Positions 2,383-10,968 of a stretch of DNA of 32,772 nt are shown here, one piece after another. Source of the DNA: Streptomyces albus subsp. albus. GTDB lineage: Bacteria; Actinomycetota; Actinomycetes; Streptomycetales; Streptomycetaceae. Below the pieces are notes generated by a model. That model worked only from the letters and a program-made list of their open reading frames with translations. It was not told where the DNA came from and ran no database searches. The stretch is taken from positions 1 to 32,772 of the forward strand of contig NZ_JOID01000041.1 in assembly GCF_000719865.1 (NCBI RefSeq), read 5' to 3'. Position numbers and translations under genes: made by a program. The stretch's first letter is position 1. Every line of letters begins with the position of its first letter.

Positions 2383-3861
2383 TCATCCGGCGAGCGGACC
2401 GTCCAGGACAGCGAGGAGCGGGCCCGCGGCGAGCCCGAGGAGCACGGAGAGGCCGGCAGCCGCCCCGGCGACCGCCGCGGCCGGGGCGGTCCGCTCGCCG
2501 GGAGAGAAGGCGCCGGCCCCGTCGTCCGGCCCGTCCGCCCCGCCCGGCTCTCCCGCTCCGGCGCCGGAGGGCGGCGCGAAGGCGAACACGGGGGCGATCC
2601 AGCGCAGGTAGTAGAAGAGCGAGGCGAGGGTGTTGACGGCGGCCAGGACCATCAGCCAGCCGAGGCCGCCGTCCAGCGCCGCGCCGAAGACCTCCAGCTT
2701 GCCCAGGAAGACGGCCGTGGGCGGGGTCCCCAGCAGGCCCAGCAGGCACACCGTCAGGGAGACGGCGAGCACGGGCCGGTGCCGGGCCAGGCCGTGGTAG
2801 CCGTCGATCGTGCGGATCGCGGGGAGGGCGCAGACGACAGCGAAGGCGCCGAGGTTCGTCAGCGCGTAGGCGGCCAGGTAGAAGAGCAGCGCCGGCTGGG
2901 CGAGGGAGCCGGGTCCCGCCACGGCGACGGGCATCAGCAGATAGCCGACCTGGCTGATCGACGAGTAGGCGAGCAGGCGCCGCACGTCCCGCTGGAAGAA
3001 CGCGGCCAGATTGCCGAGGGTCATCGAGGCGGCGGACAGCACGGCCACCAGTTCGGGCCAGCCGGCGGACGTCCCGGAGAACGGCACGGCCGCCAGCCGG
3101 TACAGCGCCGCCACTGCGCCGATCTTGGGGACGGTGGTGAGGAAGGCGCCGACCGGCGCCGTGCTGCCCTGCACCGCGTCCGGCAGCCAGTAGTGGCCGG
3201 GGACCGCCGCGGCCTTGAACGCCATACCGGCCAGCAGCAGGACCGTCCCGGCGGCCGTCAGGCCCGCCGGGGCGTCCGGCAGCTCCGTCCGCAGCAGGGG
3301 GTAGGCGGAGCCGCGCCCGGCCGCGTACAGCAGGGTGATGCCGGCCAGCATCAGCAGCCCGAGCAGCGCGCCGACCACGTAGTACTTCAGGGCGGCCTCG
3401 GTGCCGGGCCCGTCCTTGCGGAAGCCCGCCAGGACGTAGGAGGGGACGCTCGCCAGCAGATAGGCGGCGGCGAGCAGCAGCAGGTCCTGCGCTCCGGCGA
3501 GCATCAGGGCGCCCAGCGCGGCGAGTTGCAGCAGGACGAAGAACTCCGACTGCCGGGGGTGCCCGTGCAGGGGGCCGAGTCCCAGCAGGGAGACCAGCAG
3601 CGTGGAGCCGAGGATCACGATCCGGGCGGTGCCCGTGACGGGGTCGGCGGCGAAGGAGCCGCTGAAGGCGGTGGCGGGCGGCCCGGTGGCGAGGACGGCT
3701 GCCGCCACGGCGCCCGCTCCGCACACCGCGCAGGCCAGCGCGCCCACCAGCCACTGCCGGCGGCGCGGCAGCCACGAGCCCAGCAGCAGTCCGGCGACGG
3801 CCCCGGCCGCGAGCAGCGCCTCGGGGACGAGTTCGACGAGGCTCCGTTCCATCGGGGTCAT
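2383..3861 (-). CDS. nuoN: NuoN-like proton-pumping antiporter subunit of complex I
   Basis: A 492-residue multi-spanning membrane protein, last gene of the operon, whose ATG overlaps the nuoM stop (ATGA). NuoN/Mrp hallmarks are present: SVPSYVLAGF at TM4-5, ALKYYVVGA, the discontinuous TM7 stretch AFKAAAVPGHYWLPDAVQGS with its Lys, and VPKIGAVAALYRL. The TM5 carboxylate found in most NuoN proteins (the Glu of ELxSLP) is not there: the aligned segment reads YLLASVP (Y134, L135, P140). The C-terminus is Ala/Gly-rich and shorter on motifs. Role: one of three antiporter-like units expected to move protons across the membrane; the altered TM5 makes the coupling here uncertain. Confidence 0.93.
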   Translation of the reverse strand: MTPMERSLVELVPEALLAAGAVAGLLLGSWLPRRRQWLVGALACAVCGAGAVAAAVLATGPPATAFSGSFAADPVTGTARIVILGSTLLVSLLGLGPLHGHPRQSEFFVLLQLAALGALMLAGAQDLLLLAAAYLLASVPSYVLAGFRKDGPGTEAALKYYVVGALLGLLMLAGITLLYAAGRGSAYPLLRTELPDAPAGLTAAGTVLLLAGMAFKAAAVPGHYWLPDAVQGSTAPVGAFLTTVPKIGAVAALYRLAAVPFSGTSAGWPELVAVLSAASMTLGNLAAFFQRDVRRLLAYSSISQVGYLLMPVAVAGPGSLAQPALLFYLAAYALTNLGAFAVVCALPAIRTIDGYHGLARHRPVLAVSLTVCLLGLLGTPPTAVFLGKLEVFGAALDGGLGWLMVLAAVNTLASLFYYLRWIAPVFAFAPPSGAGAGEPGGADGPDDGAGAFSPGERTAPAAAVAGAAAGLSVLLGLAAGPLLAVLDGPLAG

Positions 3862-5369
3862 CGGGCGAGCAGCTCCATGACGCCGCGCGAGGCGGGCTCG
3901 ATGACGTCCAGCACGAAGCGCGGCGCGATGCCGAGGAGGACGCCGAGGCCCAGCAGCGGTACGACGGCGGCGCGTTCGGCCGTCCGGAGGTCGGGGAAGG
4001 GCCGCCCGGCGCCGGGCGCGTCGGGCAGCCGGAGCGGCCCGAGGAGCATCCCCTGCAGGGCGCGGAGGAAGAGGCCGGCGGTGAGGAGGATGCCGAGCAC
4101 GGCGAGGGAGGTCTCCACCGGCCGGGTGCCGAGGCTGCCGGTGAAGATCTGGAACTCGGCGATGAAACCGGAGAACCCCGGCAGCCCGAGGGAGGCGAAG
4201 GCGGCCACCCCGGTCAGCGCGGCGAAGACGGGGGCGCGGCCGGCGAGCCCCGAGTAGGCCGCCATCTCGTAGGTGCGGCAGCGGTCGTACAGCACTCCGG
4301 CGAGGAGGAACAGCGCGCCGGTCAGCAGTCCGTGGCTGACCATCTGGAAGACGGCGCCGGTGACGGCGAGCCGGCGGGCCTCCTCCGCCCCGGCGCCCGT
4401 GGCGGCCGCCGCGCCGAACGCCAGGACGATGTAGCCCATGTGGTTCACGGAGGTGTAGGCGATCATCCGCTTGAAGTCGGTCTGGGCGAGCGCGACCAGC
4501 GCCCCGTACAGCACCGACACCAGGCCCACGACGACGAACACCTGGGTGTACTCGCGCCAGGCACCGGGGAGGACGGGCAGGGCGATGCGCAGGAAGCCGT
4601 AGGTGCCCATCTTCAGCAGGACCCCGGCCAGGATCGCCGAGCCCACGGCGGGGGCCTCGGTGTGGGCGGGCGGGAGCCAGGTGTGGAAGGGCACTGTGGG
4701 CGTCTTGACGGCCAGTCCGGTGCCGATGGCGAGCAGCACCAGGCCGCCGTACGCGGCCCGGCCGGCGAGCGGGTTCTCCCGGGTCAGTTCGGTGATGTCG
4801 AAGGTGTGCGGGTCGGCGGCCAGGTAGAGGCCGATGAAGCCGAGGAGGAGGGCCAGGGAGCCGAGGAAGGTGTAGAGGAAGAAGGTGAGGGCGGCCCGTG
4901 CGGCGTCCCGGTGGCCCCAGCCCGCGATGACGAAGTACATCGCGACGATGGACAGGTCGAAGAAGAGGAAGAACAGGATCAGGTCCAGCGCGGCGAACAG
5001 CCCGAGGCAGGTGGTCTGCAGGAAGAGGAAGAGGGCGGCGAACTCCCGCACCCGGCGGGTGCCGCGCCGCGCCCAGGTGTAGCCGGCGCAGGCGAGGAAC
5101 AGCACGCAGGTGAGGGCCATCAGCGGCAGGGACAGCCCGTCGACGCCGACGTGGTAGCTCACCCCCGCGTCCGGGATCCAGCGCACCCGCTGCTCGTACT
5201 GGATGCCGCCGCCCGGCCGGTACCCCGCCCAGATCGCGGCGGTGAGGGCGAGTTCCGCCGCCGCGGTCGCCAGCCAGCCGCCGAGGAACACGGCGCGCGG
5301 CGCGCGGCGGGGCAGGCAGAGCAGGACTGCCGCGGCCGCGGTGGGCAGCAGGACGAGGACCGTCAGCAC
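3858..5369 (-). CDS. nuoM: NuoM-like antiporter subunit of complex I
   Basis: A 503-residue polytopic protein starting at GTG 5367-5369, six bases after the nuoL stop and overlapping nuoN by 4 bases. Family motifs are clear: MYFVIAGWGHRD, the TM7 segment VKTPTVPFHTWLPPAHTEAP with the conserved Lys, LLKMGTYGFLRI and YTSVNHMGYIVLAFG. Where canonical NuoM carries the essential TM5 Glu (FFE), this protein has Asp138 (LFFDLSIV). It would form the central antiporter module between NuoL and NuoN. The retained Lys/His residues argue that ion translocation is still its task. Confidence 0.94.
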   Translation of the reverse strand: MLTVLVLLPTAAAAVLLCLPRRAPRAVFLGGWLATAAAELALTAAIWAGYRPGGGIQYEQRVRWIPDAGVSYHVGVDGLSLPLMALTCVLFLACAGYTWARRGTRRVREFAALFLFLQTTCLGLFAALDLILFFLFFDLSIVAMYFVIAGWGHRDAARAALTFFLYTFLGSLALLLGFIGLYLAADPHTFDITELTRENPLAGRAAYGGLVLLAIGTGLAVKTPTVPFHTWLPPAHTEAPAVGSAILAGVLLKMGTYGFLRIALPVLPGAWREYTQVFVVVGLVSVLYGALVALAQTDFKRMIAYTSVNHMGYIVLAFGAAAATGAGAEEARRLAVTGAVFQMVSHGLLTGALFLLAGVLYDRCRTYEMAAYSGLAGRAPVFAALTGVAAFASLGLPGFSGFIAEFQIFTGSLGTRPVETSLAVLGILLTAGLFLRALQGMLLGPLRLPDAPGAGRPFPDLRTAERAAVVPLLGLGVLLGIAPRFVLDVIEPASRGVMELLAR

Positions 5370-10627: not shown

Positions 10628-10968
10628 CGGAAGGCCCCCTCGCGCCGGGCGTAGACCACGCCCGCGAAGAGAATGCCGAGGAAGAGGAACATCTCGGCCA
10701 CGGCGCTCGGGCCCTTCTCGGCGACCACCCGGACCCAGGGGTACATGAAGAGCATCTCCATGTCGAAGGCCAGGAAGATCATGGTGACGGGATACCAGCG
10801 CACATGGAACCGGGAGAAGGCGTGCTCACCCGGCGGCGGACCGCCGCTGAACGGCCCGGCCTCCAGCGGCTCGCGGTCCGCCGCCAGCCACAGTCCCACG
10901 CCCCGGAGCAGCAGCAGCCCTCCGGCCACCACGCCCAGGAGCGGCAGCACCGGCTCCCATCCGTCCAT
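10618..10968 (-). CDS. nuoA: NuoA-like membrane subunit, first gene of operon
   Basis: A 116-residue three-helix protein. The NuoA signature FLAFDMEMLFMYPWVRVV is intact. The loop that is YECG in canonical NuoA reads PLEAG (Ala37), so the loop Cys is lost. A very strong ribosome site (GGCGGAGGAGGAC) precedes the ATG. It opens the A-BD-H-J-K-L-M-N operon; the promoter should lie between 10969 and about 11060. Confidence 0.94.
   Translation of the reverse strand: MDGWEPVLPLLGVVAGGLLLLRGVGLWLAADREPLEAGPFSGGPPPGEHAFSRFHVRWYPVTMIFLAFDMEMLFMYPWVRVVAEKGPSAVAEMFLFLGILFAGVVYARREGAFRWT

What the first reader, a model, noticed from the sequence alone, without database searches (positions are those of the whole stretch)
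2383..10968. Complex-I-like operon with the pumping arm but no electron-input module
Seen: eight same-strand, overlapping genes A-(B/D-like)-H-J-K-L-M-N and nothing resembling nuoC, E, F, G or I. Known: canonical complex I needs NuoB, C, D, I for the quinone-reducing Q-module and E, F, G for NADH. Inferred: this is a distinct complex in which an intact antiporter arm is driven (or drives) something other than NADH:quinone reduction, or works as an ion channel/antiporter. A similar second nuo set is, to my recollection, present in S. coelicolor, but no function is established that I know of.
Basis: partly seen in the sequence, partly recalled or inferred. Interest (0 to 1): 0.85.

Follow-up and report, generated by a model that had tools for sequence, protein, structure and literature searches.

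The report
Redox-dead complex I tied to copper
An eight-gene operon looks like a respiratory complex I whose electron-carrying half has become a scaffold, often with metal-binding parts, and its relatives tend to sit with copper-resistance genes, so it is probably a copper-handling membrane machine rather than a respiratory enzyme or a marine-salt adaptation.

Summary
Confirmed: 2383-10968 (-) encodes NuoA, a NuoB/NuoD-like fusion (BD), NuoH-J-K-L-M-N. BD is related to NuoB and NuoD but lacks the N2 cysteines and NuoD quinone histidines; the NuoH quinone loop is mostly altered. It cannot be a quinone reductase as known. New here: (1) copper genes flank 34 of 79 relatives vs 2 of 80 control windows; (2) the BD linker is His-rich in about two thirds (61 of 95, rough cut) or carries a heavy-metal-binding domain in some; (3) methionine content rises in NuoJ, K, A (NuoJ 10.0 vs 2.5%) and falls in H, L, M, N; the conserved NuoJ Tyr is Met in 98 of 98; (4) a CsoR-operator-like palindrome lies upstream of nuoA in 15 of 95 loci vs 0 of 400 control stretches. 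In print the operon is a 'partial nuo' marine adaptation; I saw no copper link. Best explanation: a complex-I-derived Cu(I)-handling complex, most likely proton-driven export. Copper involvement is well supported, transport inferred. The window copy itself has only DUF305 nearby and no CsoR-like site.

The parts
10618..10968 (-). nuoA-like, 116 aa; keeps the TM2 Asp/Glu pair, loses the YECG loop, has invariant His55, Met72, Met75
   Evidence: Pfam PF00507 E 1e-22; residue tables
9197..10627 (-). BD: NuoB-like + His/Gly-rich linker + NuoD-like fusion, 476 aa
10313..10627 (-). NuoB-like part of BD (about residues 1-105), no N2 cysteine ligands
   Evidence: best PDB hit Thermus NuoB E 2.5e-5; hhalign; no Cys among invariant or 90% columns of 76 sequences
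9992..10300 (-). disordered His-rich linker of BD (about residues 110-212); in relatives His/Met runs or an HMBD heavy-metal-binding domain, in some neither
   Evidence: pLDDT mostly under 50
9197..9985 (-). NuoD-like part of BD (about residues 215-476), quinone histidines replaced
8260..9204 (-). nuoH-like, 314 aa; quinone loop mostly altered
   Evidence: PF00146 E 1e-39
7678..8241 (-). nuoJ-like, 187 aa, methionine-rich
   Evidence: PF00499 E 5e-11
8011..8091 (-). predicted helix 51-77 of NuoJ (TM3) with Met60,61,65,68,72,76,77 and new Glu64
   Evidence: helix in a low-confidence model; conservation
7376..7681 (-). nuoK-like, 101 aa; both functional Glu kept; Met29, Met31, Met70, Met74 gained
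   Evidence: PF00420
5376..7379 (-). nuoL-like antiporter subunit, 667 aa; Glu132, Lys212, Lys288, Lys325, Lys380 kept
   Evidence: PF00361
3858..5369 (-). nuoM-like antiporter subunit, 503 aa; TM5 Glu changed to Asp138
   Evidence: TIGR01972 above cut-off
2383..3861 (-). nuoN-like antiporter subunit, 492 aa; TM5 Glu lost (Leu135)
   Evidence: PF00361
11212..12465 (-). NlpC/P60 peptidase upstream; its family recurs near the operon in 10 of 84 loci, this one included
12554..13189 (-). DUF305 lipoprotein; DUF305 proteins include the copper-binding CopM; one of two DUF305 hits in the held genome
   Evidence: PF03713 E 2e-51; PMC4335983 passages

Best explanation
The operon encodes a redox-dead, complex-I-derived membrane complex that handles copper, most likely Cu(I). 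Shown by sequence: the whole membrane arm is kept, but the quinone module survives only as a fused NuoB-NuoD scaffold without the iron-sulfur ligands or quinone histidines; many members have a His-rich or HMBD linker in it; and the subunits that lie under it in complex I (NuoJ, K, A) have gained conserved methionines. Inferred mechanism: the BD scaffold sits where the quinone module sat and collects cytoplasmic Cu(I), the metal passes into the methionine-lined J/K/A core and out of the cell while protons flow inward through NuoL/M(/N), i.e. complex I run as a proton-driven Cu(I)/H+ antiporter beside CopA, multicopper oxidase and DUF305 proteins. My odds: redox-dead about 0.95; copper or a related soft metal about 0.85; transport (rather than gating), outward and proton-driven, about 0.5.
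For: Copper context: 34 of 79 loci vs 2 of 80 control windows, Fisher 1.3e-10; two or more copper families 27 of 79 vs 0 of 80; holds in Streptomyces (14 of 36 vs 1 of 60), outside it (20 of 43 vs 2 of 80) and after dereplication (32 of 77). Unnamed-genome relatives: 7 of 11 of L211-L221 and 2 of 5 of L206-L210. Plasmids: 14 of 20 contexts read name copper or heavy-metal genes (one, Rubrobacter tropicus L275, is also L220 above); in Rubrobacter tropicus DUF305, a heavy-metal P-type ATPase, a metal-sensitive regulator and a copper-binding protein precede nuoA on the same strand; cueR, annotated Cu(I)-responsive, in two. CsoR-like palindrome within 300 bases upstream of nuoA: 15 of 95 with 11 or 12 of 12 half-site letters (5 with 12; 8 keep the TAC-X9-GTA ends that PMC3902906 calls required) vs 0 of 400 control stretches and 0 of 21 canonical nuoA. 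HMBD in 4 of 10 deep BDs (E 2e-12 to 1e-22) and by motif in 8 of 15 plasmid BDs. Met content, family vs canonical: J 10.0/2.5%, K 8.8/5.7, A 5.8/3.0, but H 2.7/3.7, L 1.7/3.4, M 2.2/3.2, N 1.8/2.8. NuoJ Met27/60/61/65/68/72/76/77/85/87/138 and His89, NuoK Met29/70/74, NuoA His55/Met72/Met75 are 15 of 15 in plasmid copies that include Proteobacteria. Redox loss.
Against: No experiment shows metal binding or transport. 45 of 79 loci have no copper-core gene in the fetched flank (about 10 kb upstream, about 2 kb downstream of nuoN; of 58 dereplicated loci of 20 kb or more, 27 have one). The window copy has only DUF305 and no CsoR-like site (best 8 of 12). Six of 20 plasmid contexts name no copper gene (one of them, L283, has mostly unnamed genes). 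A His-rich linker is not universal (5 or more His in 61 of 95 by a rough cut; neither His run nor HMBD seen in L211-L215 and L221). Some Met positions are not kept outside the main set (NuoJ Met134 7 of 15, Met141 4 of 15; NuoK Met31 9 of 15; NuoA His49 7 of 15). NuoM also has 3 near-invariant Met positions vs 0 in canonical, and NuoH 1 vs 0. The seven TM3 methionines together are not significantly one-sided (P 0.17). No outward path or stoichiometry is shown.
Confidence: 0.55

Rival explanations
1. Copper is the signal, not the cargo: Cu(I) binding to BD and the methionine core gates a proton (or Na+/K+) antiporter arm to protect membrane potential or pH during copper stress.
For: All NuoL and most NuoM ion-path residues are kept; the copper context and operator-like sites fit equally well.
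Against: A gate would need few ligands, whereas 12 positions of NuoJ are Met in 90% or more of the family vs 1 in canonical NuoJ.
Confidence: 0.2
2. Copper uptake or delivery: the complex moves Cu(I) the other way, or supplies extracytoplasmic cuproenzymes such as multicopper oxidase.
For: Multicopper oxidases are frequent neighbours (12 of 79 vs 0 of 80).
Against: Neighbours are mostly export and detoxification genes (P1B ATPase, CsoR, CopZ-like, DUF305), and some promoters have sites like those of the repressor CsoR, whose DNA binding is abolished by Cu(I) (PMC3902906 passages).
Confidence: 0.1
3. Marine or osmotic adaptation: a partial proton or sodium pump, as the literature says.
For: Reported as a marine or osmotic adaptation operon in Salinispora, Streptomyces and Kocuria (PMC3314556, PMC4018334, PMC6002675, PMC6676996, PMC8622039; passages read); many plasmid records come from marine samples.
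Against: Without a redox module it cannot pump from NADH; the 79 loci come largely from genera that I recall as soil genera (Streptomyces, Actinomadura, Nonomuraea, Nocardia); strains from copper-rich settings carry it and are read there as osmotic (SM254, K. marina SO9-6); copper genes, operator-like sites and metal ligands stay unexplained.
Confidence: 0.08
4. A hybrid: the membrane arm borrows the missing soluble subunits from the cell's own complex I.
For: Another nuo set with at least A, B, D, H, J-N exists on C32; C, E, F, G and I were not searched there.
Against: BD already fills the B/D place without ligands; the NuoH loop is altered (C32 position E274 is Arg in 96 of 99); the operon occurs on plasmids of two phyla.
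Confidence: 0.03

Closest known systems
Respiratory complex I (NDH-1)
   Same: Homologous A, H, J, K, L, M, N in the same order; NuoB- and NuoD-related fusion between A and H; most proton-path Lys/Glu of L, M, K kept
   Different: No C, E, F, G, I in the operon; no N2 cysteines; no quinone His in the D part; altered NuoH loop; Met-rich J/K/A; metal-binding linker in many members; copper context
'Partial 2' nuoAHJKLMN operon (Penn and Jensen 2012, PMC3314556; also PMC6676996)
   Same: By gene order (A, hypothetical, H, J, K, L, M, N as drawn in PMC6676996) the same operon; their sequences were not compared here
   Different: There read as a proton or sodium pump for sea water or osmotic stress; the hypothetical protein was left unexplained; no metal link in the passages read
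Mrp cation/proton antiporters
   Same: L/M/N-type subunits without a redox module (recalled)
   Different: Mrp has no NuoA/H heel with a BD scaffold and no metal-binding adaptor (recalled; not searched here)
CusA, CTR1 and P1B-ATPases (copper transporters)
   Same: Works like: methionine-lined Cu(I) path (recalled for CusA and CTR1); gene neighbourhoods shared with P1B ATPases and CusA
   Different: No homology claimed; this one is built from a complex I frame

Membership tests
Respiratory complex I | NuoA,H,J,K,L,M,N membrane arm | tested here: met
   Pfam families for all seven; collinear in 93 of 94 loci with all seven, of 99 examined
Respiratory complex I | NADH module NuoE/F/G and NuoI, NuoC | tested here: not met
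   Absent from the operon and the window proteins scanned; no such product named in the 20 plasmid contexts read
Respiratory complex I | NuoB with four Cys for cluster N2 | tested here: not met
   NuoB-like by profile but no Cys among invariant or 90% columns of 76 sequences; ligand identity recalled
Respiratory complex I | NuoD quinone histidines (GPQHPSTHGVL) | tested here: not met
   Aligned stretch reads GPLFPGLPAGL in L217 and GPALPDWPAGL in the window; role of the His recalled
Respiratory complex I | NuoH acidic quinone loop | tested here: not met
   Of seven conserved charged/Tyr positions at C32 239-274, four replaced (E239, R242, Y262, E274), one mixed (D246), one E to D (E253), one kept (E261)
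Respiratory complex I | Proton-path residues of L, M, N, K | tested here: inconclusive
   Kept in L and K; M TM5 E to D; N TM5 E lost
Mrp antiporter | Mrp gene set without a NuoA/H-type heel (recalled) | tested here: not met
   This operon has A, H, J and BD
Copper resistance system | Genetic linkage to copper genes and copper-sensor-type operators | tested here: met
   At family level, in part of the loci; the window copy has DUF305 only
Copper resistance system | Copper-dependent expression and tolerance | not testable with these tools
   Needs experiment

The most novel reading that the evidence does not exclude
The first known metal transporter built from complex I: the quinone module has become a copper-receiving adaptor, the gating helix of NuoJ a methionine track, and the antiporter arm the engine that expels Cu(I) against proton influx. 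It would be a mobile copper-resistance machine present in at least two phyla and long read as a marine respiratory adaptation.
Probability: 0.45. Interest if true: 0.95.

Novelty: new variant of a known kind. Interest (0 to 1): 0.87.

Why it matters
How complex I couples quinone chemistry to proton movement is a long-standing question. A natural version without electrons or quinone, but with nearly the whole arm and a different ligand system at the coupling point, lets one ask what the arm does when something else drives it. It also recasts an operon described as a marine adaptation as probable copper biology, suggests a function for a hypothetical protein family with at least 1433 relatives among the candidates scored, and predicts a new class of copper transporter.

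Tried and rejected
A NADH-linked role was rejected because BD and NuoH lack redox and quinone residues. Osmotic or sodium function was kept only as a rival. A one-sided methionine stripe on NuoJ TM3 was tested and not supported for all seven residues (P 0.17); five of them lie within 80 degrees, a choice made after seeing the data. The NuoJ model is weak (pLDDT 64.5) and was used only for helix limits. Pfam gave no family for BD, and NCBIfam only two hits near E 0.4. A CsoR-like site was sought in the window and not found. The canonical nuo stretches (0 of 21 with copper-core genes) are a weak control, as they hold little flank. Paper searches: one search gave one unrelated paper; some searches gave listings (titles, starts of abstracts) in which I saw no paper on this operon and copper; most were not opened. 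The Alteromonas copper paper (PMC8478169) has no hit for NADH, nuo, complex I or DUF305 in the main text.
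Full report
CHECK OF THE OBSERVATION. The eight genes are at the stated place and Pfam names seven of them as complex I membrane subunits; BD has no Pfam family and no NCBIfam family of weight. The operon is accessory: 28 of 199 genomes of the genus, own genome included.

THE MEMBRANE ARM. Against 19-21 canonical operons of the same phylum (12 for NuoJ), NuoL and NuoK keep their key Glu/Lys; NuoM changes the TM5 Glu to Asp (92 of 96); NuoN loses it (Leu in 91 of 95) but keeps three Lys. 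In NuoH, of seven conserved charged or Tyr positions in the loop (C32 numbering 239-274), four are replaced (E274 by Arg in 96 of 99), one is mixed, one is E to D, and E261 is kept; E190 and K319 are kept. Met content rises in J (10.0 vs 2.5%), K (8.8 vs 5.7) and A (5.8 vs 3.0) and falls in H, L, M and N; positions that are Met in 90% or more, family vs canonical: J 12/1, K 7/1 (start Met counted), A 3/0, H 1/0, L 2/6, M 3/0, N 1/2. So the rise is not a bias of the whole operon, though NuoM also has three such positions. The NuoJ Tyr that is 28 of 28 in canonical sequences is Met in 98 of 98, and Glu64 is new in 98 of 98 (2 of 30 canonical loci dropped because no reading frame fitted). In 15 plasmid copies, including Rubrobacter and Proteobacteria, NuoJ Met27/60/61/65/68/72/76/77/85/87/138 and His89, NuoK Met29/70/74 and NuoA His55/Met72/Met75 are 15 of 15, but NuoJ Met134 is 7, Met141 4, NuoK Met31 9 and NuoA His49 7 of 15. 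That this Tyr lies at the pi-bulge of TM3 in complex I is recalled.

COPPER CONTEXT. Clustering of genes without prior choice in 84 loci (79 + 4 plasmids + the window) put P1B ATPases (25 loci) first among flank families that are not operon genes or frames antisense to them; then DUF305 (14), multicopper oxidase (13), MFS (13), ABC (12), an unnamed His-containing family (12), CsoR (10), NlpC/P60 (10), BlaI and M48/M56 peptidases (9 each), CopZ-like (8). The seed families were chosen because they had been seen beside plasmid copies; the 79 loci are other records. The ABC seed gave 10 of 79 vs 17 of 80; MFS gave 11 of 79 vs 0 of 80, but that seed came from a case locus; a BlaI seed gave 13 of 79 vs 0 of 80. 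The result holds by genus and after dereplication. I read 20 of the 30 plasmid hits (13, 17); the ten skipped are of genera of which another record was read. Fourteen name copper or heavy-metal genes; the six without are L009, L276, L280, L283, L286, L287. A palindrome like the published S. lividans CsoR consensus lies within 300 bases upstream of nuoA in 15 of 95 loci at 11 or 12 of 12 letters (5 at 12; 8 with intact TAC-X9-GTA ends) vs 0 of 400 control stretches and 0 of 21 canonical nuoA (two of 97 NuoA loci not usable); at 10 or more it is 29 of 95 vs 9 of 400. In the first 10 kb the looser pattern is in 28 of 79 vs 2 of 80. The window has DUF305 (one of two hits in the held genome) but no such site.

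METAL SITE IN BD. The linker has 5 or more His in 61 of 95 members by a rough cut. Six relatives (L211-L215, L221) show neither, yet the NuoJ methionines are invariant across the 98.

HISTORY. In a NuoM tree 43 family rows form one clade (95/91), and proteobacterial copies fall in two places inside it, one beside Rubrobacter. This suggests one origin and at least two moves between phyla. Proteobacterial copies were looked for only among plasmids.

LITERATURE. The operon is in print as a partial nuo marine or osmotic adaptation (PMC3314556, PMC4018334, PMC6002675, PMC6676996, PMC8622039; passages read). PMC6676996 draws a hypothetical protein without UniProt or PDB homologs between nuoA and nuoH, and says that a strain from copper-rich mine fluid carries the operon, read there as osmotic. 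The DUF305 protein CopM binds copper (PMC4335983, passages). In the listings of searches and the passages read I saw no copper link for this operon; subscription papers and preprints are mostly not held.

MECHANISM. Shown by sequence: homology, loss of redox residues, gain of methionines, copper linkage in part of the loci, operator-like sites. Inferred: copper binding, transport, outward direction and proton coupling.

Noticed in passing
L009 15231-23056 (Rhodococcus oxybenzonivorans plasmid): A decayed copy: nuoA and BD remain, J to M have no hit in the stretch, integrases follow.
   Followed up: no
Flanks of the 79 loci: BlaI/MecI/CopY regulators (13 of 79 vs 0 of 80) and M56-type peptidases (9 of 79 vs 0 of 80) are also enriched; 5 of the 9 loci in the peptidase cluster have no copper-core gene. 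A possible second regulatory link.
   Followed up: partly
L054, L058, L070, L071, L075, L083, L099: A family with the motif VGNTPVL...AKLEG.NPGGIKDR (cysteine-synthase-like by recall, not scanned) recurs near the operon in 7 of 84 loci.
   Followed up: no
L274 20810-23082 (Halomonas plasmid): Ergothioneine genes egtB and egtD follow nuoN; a thiol that may bear on copper stress.
   Followed up: no
G000 contigs C3, C38, C8: The own genome has further complex-I-like sets: C3 (A,H,K,L,M,N relatives, a PF00499 hit and NuoB), C38 (NuoB, NuoD, NuoH and two antiporter-like hits) and a NuoD-like 639-aa frame on C8.
   Followed up: no
window 20968-23304 (-): 778-aa frame with a pretoxin HINT domain, close to an integrase (23707-24984) and a transposase (17021-18112).
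   Followed up: no
window 28473-30614 (+): Cytochrome oxidase subunit I (COX1) in the same contig; a ctaD gene also lies near the Rhodococcus plasmid copy.
   Followed up: no
window 692-2278 (-): Downstream of nuoN: a cytochrome P450 (910-2184) followed, in another frame, by a 4Fe-4S ferredoxin domain.
   Followed up: no
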